A stretch of 64,000 nt of DNA. Source: Paraburkholderia sp. FT54. Lineage in GTDB: Bacteria; Pseudomonadota; Gammaproteobacteria; Burkholderiales; Burkholderiaceae. Numbering within the stretch: position 1 is the first letter of the stretch; every line of letters starts with the position of its first letter. A program made the translations under genes and the position numbers. The notes under the pieces were generated by a model. It was not told where the DNA came from. It saw only the letters and a program-made list of their open reading frames with translations, and searched no databases. The DNA is taken from NCBI RefSeq assembly GCF_031585635.1, contig NZ_CP134195.1:434001-498000 (forward strand), read 5' to 3'. Positions 21,803 through 49,125 of the stretch are shown piece by piece.

Positions 21803-22844
21803 GCGCGATTCGGTGCGACACGCACGCTCGTGTCCGGTGGCTCCACGTTACGGAGCATCGACTAGAGGGTTATTGAGGCAACTCACCATGCCCTCCGCAG
21901 GCGGCCCCCTTGTGGGCTGCACTTTAAGAAGCAGATGCGACCCTATGGGAAGCATCCTTGTAGTGAAATTGGAAACCGGAGCAATCAGCCGGCAACCTTG
22001 TTGCATGGACTTGATTACCGTCAGGTCCCGCCCAGTCAGCGGCTTCACCTCCGCCGACAGGGCGGGGTGATGTTTGCAATTCCCGAGCTTTCAGGCAAGG
22101 GTTTCGCTAAACCGATACGAGCGAAAGCTCGGTGTGTCATTGTTCGACCTCGTCGCTGAAGATGAGGGTAGTGAACCTGCTGTACGACCAGCAGTAGCCT
22201 AGGAGGACATGCGTCACTGGCAACGGTGAGGTGTGAAGCTCTTCTGACAATGTAGCCCCCGGACGTTTCGGGCAGATCGTTTCCGCGAGGAAGCGGTCTG
22301 GATACTCCTAGCAGCAAGGGGGTAAGGCGCTAGGCTGGCTGATAGGGTTAACGGAAGTGAACTGCTGATAAACCTCGTTAGCATTGTGTGCCAAAGCTGC
22401 TGATAGGCACTGACCAACAGGTATGCGGTTGGATAGCCCGCTCGAATCTCGGGCTACGTCGTTAGTGATACCGCCGGGGAATAGGCAGAACCTAAGTCAG
22501 TCGTGTGGCATGCCGGGAACGTGGTAAGCCTGTATGGTTGCCAGCGCAGTAGGGCTGGCAGGCGAACCGCAAGGGACGCTGTTGATTGTGCAGGTATGGG
22601 AGGACGGAAAAAGCGAAGGCCGGGCTGTAATGGACCGGATAGGGGTTGAGACATCACCTCACGCGAAAGCGGGCAGACTTCCGTCTGGTCTACCGTCGCA
22701 AGACGGCTGACTACCCTCTGTAGACTTGGTTAGATGCAGGCGCATGCGCCTGTGTTGAGTTTTGTTGTTCCCCAGCGGGGTGTATCTGCCCCGCTGGGGG
22801 AGATGCGCCTTCTGTCTGGGGACTTTTCCAGGTAGGAGAGCAGC

Positions 22845-24545
22845 ATGAAAGTATTTGGTCGAACGACCGGATCTGCGCTTTCCCACGCGCCGGACAATTG
22901 GTACGCCGTAGATTGGCGACGAGTTGAGCGGAACGTGAGAGGGATGCAGATTCGAATTGCGAAGGCGACGCGGGAAGGTGACTGGCGCAGGGTGAAAGCC
23001 CTGCAACGGATGCTGACTCGCACGTTGTCTGCAAAGCTGTATGCGGTACGACGTGTTACGCAAAACCAGGGTGCGCGAACGGCTGGAGTCGATCGCGAGC
23101 TATGGGATTCGCCTGAAAGCCGATGGGAAGCCATCGGCAGGCTGAAGCGGCGCGGATACAAGCCTCTGCCATTACGGAGAGTCTTTATCCCCAAGGCAAA
23201 TGGGAAGGAGCGTCCTCTGGGCATTCCGACCATGCGAGACAGGGCGATGCAAGCTCTGTATCTGCTGGCCTTGGAGCCAGTGTCGGAATCGACGAGCGAT
23301 CTGAACTCTTACGGGTTCAGGTTGAATCGTTCGACAGCCGACGCGATGTCCCAAATCCGCGTCTGTATGTCCCAAGAGGCCTCGGCCAAGTGGGTCCTAG
23401 AAGCGGATATCAAGGGGTGCTTCGACCACATCAGTCATGACTGGCTGGAAACCAATGTCCCGATGGACAGAGGCGTCCTCCGGAAATGGTTGAAGGCTGG
23501 CCTGATTTATCAAGGTCAGCTACGGGCGACTGAGGCCGGTACGCCGCAGGGAGGAATTATCTCCCCGACGTTGGCTAACGTAACGCTGAACGGGCTGGAA
23601 CGAGAACTGGCGGTGCATCTCGGTGCGAAGCTGGGGATCATGAAAGCCCGAAGGCTGAAAGTGAATGTGGTGCGGTACGCGGACGACTTCGTGATAACCG
23701 GTGACTCGAAAGAGATACTGGAACAGGAGGTCCGACCTTGGGTGGAGGCATTCCTTGCGGTTCGAGGGTTGCAGCTATCGGAGGAGAAAACGCGGATCAC
23801 TCACATTGACGACGGCTTCGATTTCCTTGGGTGGAATTTCCGGAAGTACTCGGGAAAGATGCTCATCAAACCGAGCAAAAAGAACGCGAAAGCGTTCTAC
23901 AGCAAGGTGGCGGAAACGATCAGCAGCAACAAGACGGCGAAGCAGGAGGAGCTGATCCGATTGCTAAACCCAATGTTGCGCGGATGGGCGCAGTACCACC
24001 ATCCGGTTACGGCCAAAAAGGCGTACACCCGCATGGAGCATCTGGTGTTTCGGAGGCTCTGGTGGTGGTCCAAGCGGCGACATCCGCGAAAGAGCAGCAG
24101 TTGGGTGAAACAGAAGTACTTCCACTCAATCGACGCTCGCCAGTGGGTGTTCGCGGTCCGGACGGTTCGAGACGATGGCAGTTGGGGCCTGATGGATTTG
24201 TATCAACTCAGCGGTACGACGATCAGGCGACACAAGAAGATCCCAGGTGAATTCAATCCCTTTGATCCGAAGTGGGAGCAATATGGCGAGCAACTGCGAC
24301 AGACGCGTCTGTGGGATTCGATGCGCTATCGGAAACAGTGGGCAAAGCTGTATATGGCGCAGAGCGGGTTGTGTGCGCACTGTGGCTGTGCCTTGACGGG
24401 CGAAACAGGCTGGCACGACCATCATCTGGAATATCGGATGCATGGCGGGTCAGACAAGTTGTCCAACCGGGTTTTGCTTCACCCGCACTGTCACCAGCAG
24501 GTACACGTTGGTAAACTGGTAGTAACTAAGCCGGTTCTGTCGTAG
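22845..24545 (+). CDS. ltrA: Group II intron reverse transcriptase/maturase with HNH endonuclease
   Basis: Multifunctional intron protein of 566 residues that helps splicing and copies the intron into DNA targets. In order: an N-terminal RT-associated domain (about 15-100), reverse transcriptase with palm motifs [10 protein letters not shown] (about 187), [10 protein letters not shown] (about 232) and Y278-ADD-281, the maturase X domain (about 340-440, [10 protein letters not shown]), and a C-terminal HNH domain (C-AHC ... [12 protein letters not shown] ... [10 protein letters not shown]). No frameshift or catalytic loss is seen, so the intron may still be mobile. A ribosome site GGTAGGAGAG precedes the ATG. 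Confidence 0.95.
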
Positions 24546-24567
24546 ACAGAACTTCGTTCGTAGATTT

Positions 24568-24601
24568 GAGCCGTATGCGGGGAAACTCGCACGTACGGTT
24601 C
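24568..24601 (+). ncRNA. Group II intron domain V
   Basis: The 34-base hairpin starts GAGCCGTATGCGG and ends CGCACGTACGGTTC, with a GGAAAC apical region. This is the catalytic domain V of bacterial group II introns and fixes orientation and the 3' end. Domain VI follows (24604-24639), a stem around CCCGATCTT/AAGGTCGGG. Confidence 0.9.
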
Positions 24602-24748
24602 TCGGGGGGCCCGATCTTCGTAAGAAGGTCGGGCTACCCGACAATTCACTCTTGGACTAAGCCGCCGAGGCCCTTCCGACCCTTGGAGCGCACGTGCACG
24701 ACACGCACGCCGCCACCCAGCCGAAGCCGCGACGCAGACACCGATCCG

Positions 24749-37396: not shown

Positions 37397-37422
37397 CGAG
37401 CCTTGAACTAACAAGGCAAATC

Positions 37423-37469
37423 TGGTCGGGGTGAGAGGATTCGAACCTCCGGCCTCTACGTCCCGAACG
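37423..37469 (-). tRNA. 3' half of tRNA-Pro(CGG), displaced by integration (attachment site)
   Basis: Read on the minus strand, the segment runs from the anticodon loop GTTCGGGAC (anticodon CGG) through the variable region and the T arm (GGAGG-TTCGAAT-CCTCT) to acceptor CACCCCG and encoded ACCA. No D arm or 5' acceptor strand follows at higher coordinates; the match to a tRNA stops at the anticodon arm. This is the pattern of a tRNA 3' end left behind when an element integrates and rebuilds the intact gene at its far end. Confidence 0.8.
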
Positions 37470-38259: not shown

Positions 38260-40272
38260 TTAGCTCGCCATGACACCGCGAAGATGGACTTCATATTTCG
38301 CGAAAGCATCGTCCTGTCTCAGATGTGCGTAATCGGAAAGCACCGTTTCTAGCTTGTCGTGTAGAAGTTGGCTTACTGTAAGAAAATCATTCGGGTTTTT
38401 TCGTAGGTAGTCGGTTGCTACGAGATGCCGTATAGCATGGGGACCGAATCCCAAGGTCTGCGGAATGAGTCGTCGAGTCAGCCTGAAAAACTGCTTATTC
38501 AGGCTTGTCCACTTGCCTGACTTGTCATTTGGGAAGAGCCAGTCTGCTTTTGTATCAGCGCGGAGGAGGCGGGGCCGGAACTCATCGAGGTATTCTTCGA
38601 TTCGGTGCCCAAGAGAGCGCGGTAGCGGCGCGTCATACACTCCTTTGATTGCTTTGCGGTCGTTTTTGAAGTCTTGGGGGCTAAACCGGATTCGCCACTG
38701 TCCGTCTTCGCGACGGTACAGTGAGCCGGAGTTGTTCGGGCGCCAAGTCATGGTGACAAGATTTCGGAGGCGAAGAGGGTTTGCGAGCACAATCGATAGC
38801 GCTAGCGCATCGCGCTTTAGGGTGGCCTCCAGCGGACTCCCTGGAGCTGCGCAAGCTGCTTCCCTGTCCAGCAACTCGACTGCTCTGAATAGAGGAGCCA
38901 ATGGTTCGGACATGTCTAACAATGACTGAATGGGGTCTTCTGGCCGTCGCGACACGTCGGTCGCGTCAGTTAGCCATTCTTTGGCGAGTTGCCACGTTTC
39001 GTGGCACGCGTTGGACCAGTCGGTGTTCAACGTTCCCGGCGGAAGCCGCGCGATGAGGTTTGGCTGCTGTGTCACAAAGCCCGTAGTCGTATTGACGAGA
39101 CTGGCGGTGAGCGCTGCGAATGCTGCATGACCTCCATGAACGAGACCACCGGACCGTCCTCGCATGAATTCGAGGTAAGCATTGACGGCATCGCGAGATG
39201 CGAACCACGCGAGGCTCTGCGCTGCATCAGTCGAAACGCCATACCCGCCTTCCTCGCGCGGTCGGGCAAGGAAACCAAAGAAGGAGCGGAATTTGTCTAA
39301 ATTTTTTTGGGCAGTCGTACAGCACAGTCCGTTACGCCATGCCTGCACCGACGGTAGTCTGGCTTGCTTTTCGCCCGATTGCAGTCGCCACGTGCCACCG
39401 GAATGTCTCGCCAAAGTTGTTCGTTTGTCGGTCTTATAGGCAAAAAATGCCTTCCATTCAACCAAGAAGTCGGCGGACAGTGCGTCTTCCTGGATGTAGT
39501 AAATATCCTTGATGTTGCGCGCAAGCCTGATGCGATAGTCGATTTGACCGGTCCCCGCAACCGAAGCGGCGTCCACGAGCGCTTTTTTAACTGCGGGAAT
39601 CAGGGATTCCAAGGCGCCGGCTTCGAGCTTCAGCTCTCGCTCAAGCCGTCTGACGGAGGGAAAAGCCCGTCGGTTGGGAAAAGCGCCTTTGAGCCAACGT
39701 GCGAGAGCCGTGGTGGATGCGCCCGCCCGCTTAGCGATGGTTTTGGGAGCATCTCCCGTTGTTGCTAGCGCGGCCCGTAGAGCGAGATGAAAAGGCGAGA
39801 CTTCCGAGTTGCGTTTTTCTACTGGCTTGATGCGTCGGTTTTCATGAAGCACAGAATCTGCGGCTTTGCGCCACGCGCGCAAGTGGCTTCTCCGGTCGCT
39901 CTTGGAGTGGCTGCTAACGGTGAGCGATTCCGAATAAGCTTTTAAGCTCTCATCGAATCGCGATAAAAGCTCCTTTCCCACAGCGGATTCGACCGTCTTG
40001 CCGTGGAACGCGAGGAAGGAATGAAGCGTTGAGAGACGGTTTTTGAGGGCCTGGTCAGATAGAGCAGCGGCATCCGTCGCGCCTTGAGACGTTACCTGGG
40101 TCTGCATGAGTACAACCAGTTCTCGGTAATAAAGGTCCATATGGTGCTCGTTTGGACCCTCAGAAAGCTGCCAAGAATCGTCGCCCTGTTCGTTACGACA
40201 AAAGATTGCATGATAACGAAAGATTGGTAACTCTATGATTTTATGTGATTTCCTCATGATGCCTCCATCCAC
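38260..40272 (-). CDS. Large tyrosine recombinase (element integrase) with internal helix-turn-helix
   Basis: Site-specific recombinase of 670 residues. The catalytic domain is C-terminal (about 480-665): first Arg in PLRLRNLVTMTW (R501 or R503), Lys in QDFKNDRK (about 536), H612-AIR-615, H638 and Y648 (LSDYAH). The N-terminal 450 residues are unlike ordinary integrases; residues about 160-222 look like an XRE/Cro helix-turn-helix (KTIAKRAGASTTALARWLKG). An in-frame ATG at 40257 is an alternative start. It faces the tRNA fragment and is probably the enzyme that integrated the element. Confidence 0.85.
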   Translation of the reverse strand: MDGGIMRKSHKIIELPIFRYHAIFCRNEQGDDSWQLSEGPNEHHMDLYYRELVVLMQTQVTSQGATDAAALSDQALKNRLSTLHSFLAFHGKTVESAVGKELLSRFDESLKAYSESLTVSSHSKSDRRSHLRAWRKAADSVLHENRRIKPVEKRNSEVSPFHLALRAALATTGDAPKTIAKRAGASTTALARWLKGAFPNRRAFPSVRRLERELKLEAGALESLIPAVKKALVDAASVAGTGQIDYRIRLARNIKDIYYIQEDALSADFLVEWKAFFAYKTDKRTTLARHSGGTWRLQSGEKQARLPSVQAWRNGLCCTTAQKNLDKFRSFFGFLARPREEGGYGVSTDAAQSLAWFASRDAVNAYLEFMRGRSGGLVHGGHAAFAALTASLVNTTTGFVTQQPNLIARLPPGTLNTDWSNACHETWQLAKEWLTDATDVSRRPEDPIQSLLDMSEPLAPLFRAVELLDREAACAAPGSPLEATLKRDALALSIVLANPLRLRNLVTMTWRPNNSGSLYRREDGQWRIRFSPQDFKNDRKAIKGVYDAPLPRSLGHRIEEYLDEFRPRLLRADTKADWLFPNDKSGKWTSLNKQFFRLTRRLIPQTLGFGPHAIRHLVATDYLRKNPNDFLTVSQLLHDKLETVLSDYAHLRQDDAFAKYEVHLRGVMAS

Positions 40273-42704: not shown

Positions 42705-43060
42705 AGTCAAGGCGGCAAAGGCGTCGCGCAACCACCGGCCGTGAAACGTCCCGGGTTATTGGTTACGCGCTGGGCGGAGTGGCAAAAGAACTAGCACGTC
42801 TGGTAGCGCGACATCTCACGCGGCGCCGGAAACCTCTCACGCGTCGAGGGGAAGTCGATATGTCGCAAAGTGATGTCTTTCGGCTTTTGTGCCGAGCATT
42901 TTCGAGAGCGATGCTTAAGCCGCGCAGCAACCCGGTGAAGGCTGCAAAGCAGCGGAGCGCTCTTTCGTTTGTGCTCGCCGCCGCGGACGTGCCTTCGTCT
43001 CTCAATGTGTCCGGTGTCCCGAGGGAACTGCGCCGCACTCGCAAACATAGGAGGCGATGA
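42701..43060 (+). CDS. Arginine-rich hypothetical protein
   Basis: A 119-residue, very basic protein beginning with a GTG that overlaps the previous stop (GTGA), and ending in an overlap with the next ATG. It contains RRQRRR and ends RELRRTRKHRRR. I recognise no domain. The two tight overlaps support that it is translated; the composition would also fit an RNA- or DNA-binding accessory protein, which is only a guess. Confidence 0.45.
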   Translation: MKSRRQRRRATTGRETSRVIGYALGGVAKELARLVARHLTRRRKPLTRRGEVDMSQSDVFRLLCRAFSRAMLKPRSNPVKAAKQRSALSFVLAAADVPSSLNVSGVPRELRRTRKHRRR

Positions 43061-43587
43061 TGGTGGGTGAGCAGCATGACAGTTCGGTTTCCGATACCCC
43101 AACACTCTTTCTCAGCTTCGGCGGCGTGTTGAATGTCGGTCACGGCCTGGTGGACGATAACGGCGTCGTCACCTTGGATTCAGGTCGGCCGCCGTTCGAG
43201 TATGCACCCTATCTTGTGGACGTCCTCACGCCTTGGCCGCAAGTACAAATCATTCTTACCACCTCGTGGCTGAGAAGCCTCGGCGATGAGAAGACCATCG
43301 CGCTGCTACCCGACGAATTGCGCCGCAGAGTCATGGGCACGACGCTTCATGCATCACCCCGTTTCGACGAAATCAAAGACGGCACCGCAAAGACCATGAC
43401 CGTCATTCGCCATTCAAAGAAGCGTGGCCTCACAAAGTGGCTGGCGCTAGATGACGAAGCGTGTGGCGTGCCTCCCGGGTTCGAACAGCATTTTTTGCAC
43501 ACAGACTCGGAAACGGCGCTAGGCGCGCCGGAAGCACGCAAACAGTTACGACGGTGGCTCGCTGCGAGCTGCCGCTGCGGCGGATAA
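43057..43587 (+). CDS. HAD-like paralogue lacking catalytic aspartates
   Basis: A 176-residue relative of the protein at 42120-42704: FEYAPYLVDVLTPWPQVQIILTTSW and WLALDDEACG align well. Motif I reads LFLSFGGVLN, so both aspartates of the DxD pair are replaced (S and G). It should therefore be inactive as a phosphatase and may bind ligand or its active paralogue. ATGATG start overlaps the previous gene by four bases. Confidence 0.68.
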   Translation: MMVGEQHDSSVSDTPTLFLSFGGVLNVGHGLVDDNGVVTLDSGRPPFEYAPYLVDVLTPWPQVQIILTTSWLRSLGDEKTIALLPDELRRRVMGTTLHASPRFDEIKDGTAKTMTVIRHSKKRGLTKWLALDDEACGVPPGFEQHFLHTDSETALGAPEARKQLRRWLAASCRCGG

Positions 43588-44892: not shown

Positions 44893-45894
44893 ATGACTGA
44901 CAGTGGCTGGGACATTGCGATGAGCAACATCGACGCGGAGTATGACATCCCGCAATTTGTCGCTTCCTCGCTTGTTCACAAAATCGCCGCAAGTGGATTT
45001 CGTCTGCCTGCTGCGGACCGCGGCAAGTTCGAAAGGCTGCCGGACGATGTAATCGCTCGCATCGAGCATATCGTGGTCGAGGCTTACCTTGAGGCCGGCG
45101 AAGACGTTGGCGAAGAAATTCTGCGTGAGGACCTTTGGCAGCAAGCCTTAATTTCCCGGCGCGACATGGTTGCAAATGGCGAGCTGGTTCCCGAAGACTC
45201 GTTCCGTGAACGTCTCGGCGTCACTCCACGGCGTCTCAGCAAACTGCTGACAGACGGCAGCGTTTTCACGATGCTGGTCGACAACGTGGAATACTATCCA
45301 GCGCTGCTCGCAGACCCAGTAGCTGACCGCAAACGACTACAGGCAATCTGCAGAATTCTCATACCAGCACCGCCGGATGCGCGCTTTGACTATCTGTCGT
45401 CAAGGCGTGGGAGTTTGGGCGGCGTTAGACCCACCGACATGTTGAACAATGATTCGGACTACGAGAAGCTGCGGCGAATGGCGCGGGCATGGGCCGCAGA
45501 GTGGTCGCGCACTGCCGTCAAGCTCTTTGAAGGGGAGCATGATAACGAGCCCGGCGGGGCCGACCCGCTTTACACAGCAATAGCTGAGGTCGACCCAAGG
45601 AGACCATTGTGGGAACGCGCCTCAGAAGCGCTCCACGTTCATGGGTATGAATGGCCACTGGGTCCGTATCCGGAGGCTCGGACATTTACCCTCTTCGTTG
45701 AGCGGCAAGCAGTGGGGGATTCGACGCCGACCCCGGAAGCCTGCATACAAGTGTCAGCAAGCGATGATTTTATTCGTGTACGAGTAAGGCATTGCGTCGA
45801 AACGGTCCCCGAATCTCAGGCAACTTTGCCTGCCAAGAGCAAGACCGTAGTAGATGTCGCAAAAAAGGTTATCGCGCACTTCTGCAAGCGCTGA
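44893..45894 (+). CDS. Hypothetical protein, possibly with an Xre/MbcA/ParS-like C-terminal segment
   Basis: A 333-residue cytoplasmic protein. Residues about 165-205 (YLSSRRGSLGGVRPTDMLNNDSDYEKLRRMARAWAAEW) resemble the antitoxin-type GG-R-P-x-D-x-L pattern of MbcA/ParS domains, though I hold this loosely. The C-terminal part has a beta-rich look (EACIQVSASDDFIRVRVRH). The ATG is preceded by TGGAGCTCAAT. No neighbour makes its role clear. Confidence 0.6.
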   Translation: MTDSGWDIAMSNIDAEYDIPQFVASSLVHKIAASGFRLPAADRGKFERLPDDVIARIEHIVVEAYLEAGEDVGEEILREDLWQQALISRRDMVANGELVPEDSFRERLGVTPRRLSKLLTDGSVFTMLVDNVEYYPALLADPVADRKRLQAICRILIPAPPDARFDYLSSRRGSLGGVRPTDMLNNDSDYEKLRRMARAWAAEWSRTAVKLFEGEHDNEPGGADPLYTAIAEVDPRRPLWERASEALHVHGYEWPLGPYPEARTFTLFVERQAVGDSTPTPEACIQVSASDDFIRVRVRHCVETVPESQATLPAKSKTVVDVAKKVIAHFCKR

Positions 45895-47622: not shown

Positions 47623-49125
47623 TTACTCTTCCGACATTGGGGGGGCTACATCGCCCCGGCGAACTTCCGACAGGTCAAGGAATATTAGCCCGTTGCGACC
47701 GGGATAACTCACGATGGCGTGTTCGTTCCAAAGGACCACTGCGCGCGGACCATTCGGTGCGACACCTAAAAATATCTTGTTTAGAGTGCGGTCGTCGACC
47801 CTATCGAGAATGGCCAGTTCGCAGTTGTTGCGATTCACGGAGAGGACAAGGTCTTCGGAAATGGCCTGAGACATTGGGTCTGCCCACGGCAACGTTTCGT
47901 TGTGCCCGTTACGGGGAACGAAGATATCTCGGACGAGGCGGTAGGTGGCCGCATCTATCACTCGGATGCCGAGCATCGATTGGAACATGCCGACATAAAG
48001 CTGATTGGACCGTTCGTCGAAACTAATACAAGCGGGGGTAGCGTCATCGCTACGGTCATCGACCACGTCAGCAAGATATACCTGAGCCACATACGAGCGT
48101 GACGTGAAGTCGTAGGCTGTCAGGAAGCAATTCCCGCCTGGATATTGCTGACCATCGAGAGCGCCGCCTCTTTGAAGGCCCAAGTACAAAATGTCACTGA
48201 CAGGATGCTTCGCGAGTGCCATGCAACCGCGGCCTGAACCCGGATAGGGCACTTCGTCAAACGAATATGTGGCACTGTCAATCACATAGAAGTTGGGAAC
48301 CCGGTTGCTGGCGAAGTAGACGGTTCGCTCATCGTGCGACGCCGCAAGCTCTCCCTCACCGCCACCCGGCAGGATGAGTCGCTTGACGATGGCTTGTGTT
48401 GCAATGTCGATTACCAGGACGAACTCTGAAAAAACTTGGCCGACAAACAGCCGCCCATCAGCTATCGCCATACTTCCCGGTGGGTAATTCAAAATTTTGC
48501 GGCTCGTCTCCTCGCTGCGGACCTCATATCTGTCAAGCTCAATCGTCTCTACAATCGCCTTCGTCCACGGGTCGATGAAGCTGATGGTGCCTGAGCGCCA
48601 GTTTGCGGTGATGAGCTGGTCTCTGTAGACAAGTAGCTGCTGGGGTTCCGACAAGGTCGGAAACTGATAGATTGGTGCTTCGCCTTCCGCTTCAACGTAT
48701 GTCAATGCAACTGACGCACTGGCACGAGCTGTACGTTCGAATTCTTCGAGCGACGTCACTAACGTAATGTTCGTTCCGCGAGCCGCATCTTGCGCCCCGG
48801 GTTGAAACCCAGCTTCGCTGACGATGATTCCACGGTCAGCGCCGAGGTCATCCACGATGCTTTTCAGCGCCAGAATCTTTTCCTTTGGTACTCGTGTGGC
48901 CCATAGTTTACATTCTACGACCCAAGTGCATGGGATGCTCTGCTGCGTGAAGGTGACATATACGTCGATATCATGGCGGGCCCTGACGCCTTCTGCCGTG
49001 TAGTCGACTTCCGCAGTGAACCCAAGCCGGCGAAACGCGGCTGCTGTCTGTTCTTGATATTGTCGCCAGTTTGCGTATTCCACCATCTCCGACCTCGCCG
49101 CATACGGCTCTATGGAAGCTGCCAC
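47623..49125 (-). CDS. Mrr-like nuclease fused to a beta-propeller
   Basis: A 500-residue fusion. Residues about 15-130 form a restriction endonuclease-like (Mrr_cat) fold: LGFTAEVDYTAEGVRARHDIDVYV, then V-V-E71-C-K73 and a downstream QPGAQDAARGTNITLV, giving the D54...E-x-K pattern of PD-(D/E)xK nucleases. Residues about 155-490 contain repeated strands of a YVTN/WD-like propeller (for example LFVGQVFSEFVLVIDIATQ, TVYFASNRVPNFYVIDSAT, QLYVGMFQSMLGIRVIDAAT). No signal peptide, so it is cytoplasmic. An ATG at 49086 is an alternative start. A defence or DNA-sensing role is inferred from the nuclease and its island position. Confidence 0.75.
   Translation of the reverse strand: MAASIEPYAARSEMVEYANWRQYQEQTAAAFRRLGFTAEVDYTAEGVRARHDIDVYVTFTQQSIPCTWVVECKLWATRVPKEKILALKSIVDDLGADRGIIVSEAGFQPGAQDAARGTNITLVTSLEEFERTARASASVALTYVEAEGEAPIYQFPTLSEPQQLLVYRDQLITANWRSGTISFIDPWTKAIVETIELDRYEVRSEETSRKILNYPPGSMAIADGRLFVGQVFSEFVLVIDIATQAIVKRLILPGGGEGELAASHDERTVYFASNRVPNFYVIDSATYSFDEVPYPGSGRGCMALAKHPVSDILYLGLQRGGALDGQQYPGGNCFLTAYDFTSRSYVAQVYLADVVDDRSDDATPACISFDERSNQLYVGMFQSMLGIRVIDAATYRLVRDIFVPRNGHNETLPWADPMSQAISEDLVLSVNRNNCELAILDRVDDRTLNKIFLGVAPNGPRAVVLWNEHAIVSYPGRNGLIFLDLSEVRRGDVAPPMSEE

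What the first reader, a model, noticed from the sequence alone, without database searches (positions are those of the whole stretch)
47623..49125. Mrr-type nuclease fused to a beta-propeller: candidate new defence or DNA-sensing protein
The N-terminal 130 residues show the PD-(D/E)xK pattern (D54, E71-C-K73) of Mrr_cat endonucleases; the remaining about 350 residues are repeated propeller strands. Nuclease plus repeat sensor is a common defence layout, but I do not know this pair as a named system. The gene stands alone on the minus strand of a tRNA-integrated element, beside unknown genes. The nuclease and propeller calls come from motifs; the defence role is inference.
Basis: partly seen in the sequence, partly recalled or inferred. 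Interest (0 to 1): 0.8.

Follow-up and report, generated by a model that had tools for sequence, protein, structure and literature searches.

The report
Mrr nuclease fused to seven-bladed propeller
This gene encodes a likely DNA-cutting enzyme joined to a wheel-shaped sensing domain on a mobile island, a layout already shown to protect E. coli against phages, so it is a new member of a known kind whose trigger is still unknown.

Summary
Residues 19-125 match Mrr_cat (E 1e-12). A confident model (mean pLDDT 87.5, pTM 0.86) fits a PD-(D/E)XK core followed by seven blades. D54-E71-K73 is D-(E/Q)-K in 214 of 216 homologues that have all three columns. The likely start is ATG 49086 (487 aa). The fusion is a widespread but rare, patchy family of about 480 aa. 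The gene lies in an island bounded by a 52-bp repeat of tRNA-Pro(CGG), about 58.6 kb, whose intact tRNA lies 32 kb beyond the window.

The layout is not unnamed. Vassallo et al. 2022 (PMC9519451, sections read) validated an E. coli anti-phage protein with a 7-bladed propeller and a separate N-terminal Mrr nuclease. I could not read its sequence, so identity with this family is likely, not shown. In Enterobacteria and one Paraburkholderia the gene sits 20 bp or less downstream of PADLOC PD-Lambda-3 A and B; here it stands alone.

New here: invariant loop residues crowd one propeller face (25 of 111 top-loop against 1 of 50 bottom-loop positions, P 4e-4), which suggests that a conserved ligand, not a fast-changing phage protein, gates the nuclease.

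The parts
47623..49086 (-).
48721..49086 (-). Mrr-type PD-(D/E)XK nuclease domain, residues 14-135 of the 500-aa ORF; D54, E71, K73
   Evidence: Pfam Mrr_cat 1.1e-12 over residues 19-125; catalytic columns; alpha-beta-beta-beta-alpha-beta-alpha-beta order in the model
47674..48672 (-). seven-bladed beta-propeller, residues 152-484; I take strand 152-154 to close blade 7
38260..40272 (-). tyrosine recombinase (670 aa) of the island
   Evidence: Pfam Phage_integrase 4.8e-7; same kind of gene at L024:17186-19183
37418..37469 (+). left end of the island: 52-bp exact direct repeat of the 3' part of tRNA-Pro(CGG); the other copy lies at C1:530006-530057, overlapping the intact tRNA outside the window

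Best explanation
A single-protein anti-phage nuclease carried by an integrative island. The C-terminal seven-bladed propeller is the sensor: its top face, where invariant residues of all seven blades come together, binds one conserved ligand (a DNA feature, nucleotide or conserved protein). Binding releases or orients the N-terminal Mrr-type PD-(D/E)XK domain, which then cuts DNA. Shown: both domains, intact catalytic residues, purifying selection, top-face conservation, island location, defence-type neighbours in relatives. From the literature: this layout protects E. coli from phage. Inferred: that this gene does so, that it acts alone, the ligand binding, the gating, and phage DNA as the target.
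For: Mrr_cat hit; D-(E/Q)-K in 214 of 216 homologues with all three columns; model pLDDT 87.5, pTM 0.86 and propeller matches. Purifying selection: window against L024 dN 0.028/dS 0.138, against L001 0.028/0.163. Invariant (>=97%) loop positions: 25 of 111 top (BC, DA) against 1 of 50 bottom (AB, CD), hypergeometric P 3.6e-4; the end of strand B carries conserved residues in all seven blades. Neighbours: PD-Lambda-3 A/B in L009 and L023, Hachiman in L009, L011, L012, L019 and L020, BREX in L009, PDC-S14 in L001, SLFN_AlbA_2 in L024, KAP, HEPN and STAND-Mrr in L002. Carried on plasmids (18 of 41 matching records hold >=80% of the query). An Mrr-beta-propeller protein was validated as anti-phage in E. 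coli (PMC9519451).
Against: The window's own close neighbours are not recognised defence genes: among six window proteins scanned with PADLOC the only signals are weak (PDC-S24 3.1e-4 for 44893-45894; PDC-S02 0.019 for the protein itself), and BenE, a benzoate transporter, lies on the other side. PADLOC 2023 has no convincing match to the two members tested (E<=1: best 0.019, E<=0.01: none), nor to the SLFN_AlbA_2 neighbour in L024. I could not check that the published E. coli protein is of this sequence family. No structure with ligand; top-face conservation could also mark an oligomer interface or packing of the nuclease domain. 16 of 216 have Q for E, which Mrr-type sites tolerate (recalled), and 2 of 216 depart further.
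Confidence: 0.7

Rival explanations
1. Modification-dependent (type IV-like) restriction: the propeller itself binds DNA, reading modified or unusual DNA, as the winged helix is thought to do in E. coli Mrr (recalled), and the nuclease cuts beside it without a separate protein trigger.
For: The nuclease domain is of the Mrr family. E. coli YncE, a close structural match, is in the PDB as a complex with DNA (3vh0, rank 16). One invariant ligand face would suit DNA. No methyltransferase among the 13 window neighbours scanned with Pfam.
Against: Among top-loop positions with >=90% conservation there is one R/K (R432) against five D/E, not the basic surface expected for DNA; invariant R319 and R249 lie in strands.
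Confidence: 0.25
2. A nuclease serving the mobile element rather than the host: plasmid or element competition, or DNA processing during transfer.
For: The gene rides on a tRNA island and on plasmids, conjugative ones among them; integrases or transposases recur near it.
Against: Relatives lie in unrelated carriers: E. coli chromosome at a fimbrial locus, several plasmids, an integrase-bearing stretch near an IMP dehydrogenase gene; besides mobility genes, defence-type genes are what recurs. No match in 50,697 phage records or by pattern scans of viral contigs.
Confidence: 0.1
3. Third component of PD-Lambda-3: the Mrr-propeller works only with PD-Lambda-3 A (a PD-(D/E)XK-like 159-aa protein by my reading of its motif) and B (TIGR02391, with a partial match to a PADLOC HEPN model).
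For: Same strand and order, about 20 bp apart in E. coli and 12 bp apart in L023.
Against: A and B have no blastp match beside it in the window or in L001, L024 and L002. In E. coli, of 3 opened loci out of 8 records with the 90-95%-identical A+B, two are followed by Qat and one by a 156-bp remnant.
Confidence: 0.1

Closest known systems
Mrr-beta-propeller anti-phage protein of Vassallo et al. 2022 (PMC9519451; its PD number is not in the parts of the main text I read)
   Same: N-terminal Mrr-family nuclease and separate 7-bladed propeller; found in E. coli, where this family has members at about 57% identity (for plasmid copies)
   Different: Sequence not compared (supplement not readable here); the host here is a relative of Paraburkholderia phytofirmans and P. 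ginsengiterrae, whose copies are 94% identical; the text seen does not say whether that system is one gene; trigger unknown in both
E. coli Mrr (type IV restriction enzyme)
   Same: Mrr_cat nuclease domain
   Different: Recalled: Mrr has an N-terminal winged helix and no propeller; here the likely sensor is a C-terminal propeller
PD-Lambda-3 (A + B)
   Same: Adjacent genes in Enterobacteria and in L023, a genome of the same genus; A looks like a PD-(D/E)XK protein
   Different: A and B are other proteins and have no match near the gene in the window; A+B also occur without a whole Mrr-propeller
E. coli YncE and YVTN S-layer propellers
   Same: Propeller fold, top structural and profile matches
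   Different: No nuclease domain; 14-17% identity

Membership tests
Mrr_cat (PF04471) PD-(D/E)XK nucleases | Profile match above the curated cut-off | tested here: met
   48.5 bits, cut-off 21
Mrr_cat (PF04471) PD-(D/E)XK nucleases | Catalytic D ... [E/Q]-x-K (pattern recalled) | tested here: met
   214 of 216 rows with all three columns, window protein included
Mrr_cat (PF04471) PD-(D/E)XK nucleases | DNA cleavage | not testable with these tools
   needs a biochemical assay
Mrr-beta-propeller anti-phage protein (Vassallo 2022) | 7-bladed propeller with separate N-terminal Mrr domain | tested here: met
   definition
Mrr-beta-propeller anti-phage protein (Vassallo 2022) | Sequence homology to the cloned E. 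coli protein | not testable with these tools
   supplementary tables could not be read; E. coli members of the present family exist
Mrr-beta-propeller anti-phage protein (Vassallo 2022) | Reduces phage plating | not testable with these tools
   bench test
PD-Lambda-3 | Genes A and B adjacent | tested here: not met
   no window stop-to-stop frame of 60 aa or more between 36 and 56 kb matches A or B of the E. coli loci by blastp at 1e-4
Classical restriction-modification | Cognate methyltransferase beside the nuclease | tested here: not met
   no methyltransferase in Pfam scans of 13 window ORFs between 37.6 and 52.2 kb; smaller ORFs there were not scanned
Type IV restriction (E. coli Mrr type) | N-terminal winged helix before the nuclease (recalled) | tested here: not met
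   nuclease match starts at residue 19; no extra domain in the model
Type IV restriction (E. coli Mrr type) | Cuts modified DNA only | not testable with these tools
   needs an assay

The most novel reading that the evidence does not exclude
The propeller reads one invariant signal shared by very different phages or by infection itself (a nucleotide, DNA end or conserved host or phage fold), so that one nuclease with one unchanging sensor face has spread across Proteobacteria and, by the labels of metagenome-assembled genomes, Gemmatimonadetes and Planctomycetes; this would be a pattern-recognition DNase rather than an arms-race sensor.
Probability: 0.3. Interest if true: 0.65.

Novelty: new member of a known kind. 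Interest (0 to 1): 0.38.

Why it matters
The layout is known to defend E. coli, but its trigger is not. The gene here is a stand-alone, well-modelled member with intact catalytic residues, and the conserved top face names a small set of residues to test. Members are named 'restriction endonuclease', 'hypothetical protein' or 'YncE' in the sources, and the two tested have no convincing match in the PADLOC 2023 models, so surveys that rest on these will probably not count the family.

Tried and rejected
Phages and viral contigs: no match (the viral scans rest on peptide patterns, 27 stretches matched a pattern and none encoded a relative). Genome sampling for further contexts: at E<=1e-60 only the own genome in the class (1 of 369), order (1 of 399) and phylum (1 of 398) samples; 3 of 144 in the genus, own included, at E<=1e-40. 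A first look at 59 relatives with the protein gave 6 genomes at E<=0.001, own included; the five others are weak partial matches (2.9e-7 to 7.9e-4) to a part of one half. Genome contigs gave two loci (L001, L002). Right-flank DNA in 40 relatives to look for an empty site: 19 of 40 match, own included; 2 of the 18 others over more than 1 kb; I did not pursue it. Guessing PADLOC accession numbers to learn which PD system is the Mrr-propeller: three tries, all PD-Lambda-5 models; abandoned. Literature: searches (one search listed mostly engineering and clinical 'propeller' papers). Of the papers I opened, only PMC9519451 describes an Mrr-propeller anti-phage protein in what I saw (abstract, sections 7, 8, 27 and passages); PMC10952713, PMC12322248, PMC12707154 and PMC7159879 were seen as passages; the other papers as listings. 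The idea that the Mrr-propeller is part of PD-Lambda-3 was weakened by loci that hold the one without the other. No fold search of the nuclease domain alone was run; the 50 Foldseek hits listed are, by their descriptions, propeller proteins as far as I can tell, so the nuclease fold rests on Pfam, catalytic residues and strand order. VIA-align was not run; the viral fold library was asked once and the queue was full.

Rows dropped: P0115 and P0068 left out of the 27-row conservation count; all 221 rows kept. The homologue lists are capped: best 120 of 257 and best 120 of 328.

Full report
What is there. The ORF at 47623-49125 on the minus strand is real.

Domains. Pfam gives Mrr_cat (PF04471) at 1.1e-12 over residues 19-125; the YNCE and DUF5074 propeller models and a model of inactive REases score below their cut-offs, as do the NCBIfam propeller models. 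A profile of 27 family members finds the YVTN S-layer propeller 1l0q at 2.4e-12, and the propeller profile aligns with itself at an offset (second hit 1.6e-5; a plain autocorrelation in the same call showed no sharp period). AlphaFold2 on 27 sequences gives mean pLDDT 87.5 and pTM 0.86: helix 20-33, strands 37-45, 50-61, 64-72, helix 81-94, strand 98-102, helix 109-115, strand 120-123, the order of a PD-(D/E)XK core, with D54 in the second strand and E71-C-K73 at the end of the third; then strands of which I group 28 into seven blades, the last closed by strand 152-154. Foldseek's best PDB matches include 1l0q, E. coli YncE (also as a DNA complex, 3vh0) and WD40/G-beta propellers.

Is the nuclease intact? 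In 221 homologues from the listed parts of two searches, 216 have all three catalytic columns; 198 are D-E-K, 16 D-Q-K, 1 D-D-K and 1 P-E-G. Between the window and its two nearest relatives dN/dS is about 0.17-0.21. Both halves are therefore kept by selection.

How widespread is the fusion? Of the 120 proteins listed (257 found) for the window protein, each covers 82% or more of it and 119 carry a precomputed PF04471; median length of the 121 with the query is 480 aa. Members carry names from Paraburkholderia, Burkholderia, Dyella, Cupriavidus, Lysobacter, Bradyrhizobium, Pseudomonas, Klebsiella, Enterobacter, Citrobacter, E. coli and a Desulfosalsimonadaceae MAG and, through a distant member, Gemmatimonadetes and Thermoguttaceae MAGs. 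It is rare: 3 of 144 genomes of the genus, own included; own genome only in samples of 399 (order), 369 (class) and 398 (phylum); 36 of 5426 E. coli genomes (31 with at least 80% of the gene). It was not found in phage records or by pattern scans of viral contigs.

Where it sits. The island's left end is a 52-bp exact copy (37418-37469) of the 3' part of tRNA-Pro(CGG), 0.8 kb from a 670-aa tyrosine recombinase; the intact tRNA is at C1:530011-530087, 32 kb past the window's end. If these are the two ends, the element is 58.6 kb; I did not read the part beyond the window, apart from 4 kb around the tRNA, and did not show an empty site. In L024 the same gene lies 7 kb from a 665-aa recombinase. 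Against L001 and L024 the window lacks about 1.2 kb holding most of a 398-aa gene that faces the Mrr-propeller there.

Neighbours. In L001 the next gene, on the other strand, is a PADLOC candidate defence protein, PDC-S14 (1.6e-82); in L024 a Schlafen AlbA_2 protein lies upstream (no PADLOC match); in L002 a KAP NTPase, a HEPN_LA2681 protein and a STAND protein with its own Mrr_cat lie around it; in L023 and in the Enterobacterial cassette PD-Lambda-3 A and B lie upstream. Of six Enterobacterial loci with the whole gene that I opened (L009-L012, L019, L020), five have Hachiman downstream (not L010, where transposases follow) and L009 has BREX upstream. The Enterobacterial copies are near-identical and count as one context. 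So five of six contexts (window, L001, L024, L002, L023, Enterobacteria) have recognised, candidate or defence-type genes beside it; the window is the exception, and window, L001 and L024 are close relatives (94-97% protein identity). This is a small, hand-made count without a background rate.

PD-Lambda-3 is separable. A+B match in 44 of 5426 E. coli genomes. Of three loci opened among 8 records with the 90-95%-identical A+B, two are followed by Qat and one by a 156-bp remnant of an Mrr gene. PADLOC models hit A and B over their full length but not the Mrr-propeller. A review table lists PD-Lambda-3 among PD-(D/E)XK systems (PMC10952713, passages), which fits A, whose sequence holds a PD ... 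ExK-like motif by my reading, but would also fit the Mrr-propeller had it been part of the cloned operon.

What is known. Vassallo et al. 2022 (PMC9519451; abstract, sections 7, 8, 27 and passages read) selected 21 anti-phage loci from E. coli; [quoted passage not shown] The same paper says that 7 of 11 systems with DNA-binding or -cleavage components gave direct immunity; I do not know to which group this one belongs. Its PD number and sequence are not in the text I read, and I had no look-ups for supplements.

How it may work. Labelling propeller positions by the model's strands, 25 of 111 top-loop positions (BC and DA loops) but 1 of 50 bottom-loop positions are at least 97% conserved in the 221 rows (hypergeometric P 3.6e-4; mean entropy 1.36 against 1.87 bits, P 0.005). 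Related sequences are not independent and the strand limits are the model's, so the P values are a guide. The end of strand B carries conserved residues in all seven blades (N-W, Q-V-F-S, S-N, R-G-G, Q-S, R-N-N, Y-P). That BC and DA are the top loops is recalled propeller convention. Such a face is what a binding site for an unchanging ligand would look like; it could also bind the nuclease domain or a partner subunit. The nuclease half is more alike across the family than the propeller (67% against 54% mean identity to the window protein, n = 120), so the sensor does change faster overall, outside that face.

Verdict. A new member of a known kind: a stand-alone Mrr-propeller, most likely a defence nuclease, on a tRNA island. 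The defence role is likely by published analogy and neighbourhood; the trigger is the open question.

Noticed in passing
L015:5476-9059 and L017:6230-8729: Mrr domains 49% and 41% identical to this one follow a PfkB-type kinase and a QueC-like (7-cyano-7-deazaguanine synthase) gene on Methylocystis and Agrobacterium plasmids, with another C-terminus: possibly a separate defence operon.
   Followed up: no
L014:8040-8735, L016:7983-8693, L018:7989-8489: Short proteins (166-236 aa) carry a similar Mrr domain (46-52% identity) without room for the propeller: the nuclease module is reused with other partners.
   Followed up: partly
window:47281-47580: Remnant (86 aa, 83% identity) of a 398-aa gene that is whole in L001 and L024 and has a weak PADLOC ZacB match in L001: the window's copy of this neighbour looks broken by a deletion.
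   Followed up: partly
window:42120-42704 and 43057-43587: Two neighbouring genes with HAD_SAK_2 domains (Swiss Army Knife RNA repair HAD), in the same island.
   Followed up: no
window:44893-45894: 333-aa gene with relatives in L001 (63% protein identity) and L024 (DNA match); its N-terminal part weakly matches the end of the PADLOC PDC-S24 profile.
   Followed up: partly
window:22176-24642: Rfam group II intron features at 22176-22329 and 24566-24642 with a 566-aa ORF between (22845-24545).
   Followed up: no
L025:9326-10247 and L027:9323-9478: E. coli copies of the Mrr-propeller are cut short (beside an IS1 in strain 730V1; a remnant in strain C8) while PD-Lambda-3 A and B upstream stay annotated as whole.
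   Followed up: partly
L009:13535-16657: A 1040-aa protein with weak STAND/P-loop matches lies directly downstream of the Mrr-propeller in the Enterobacterial cassette.
   Followed up: no
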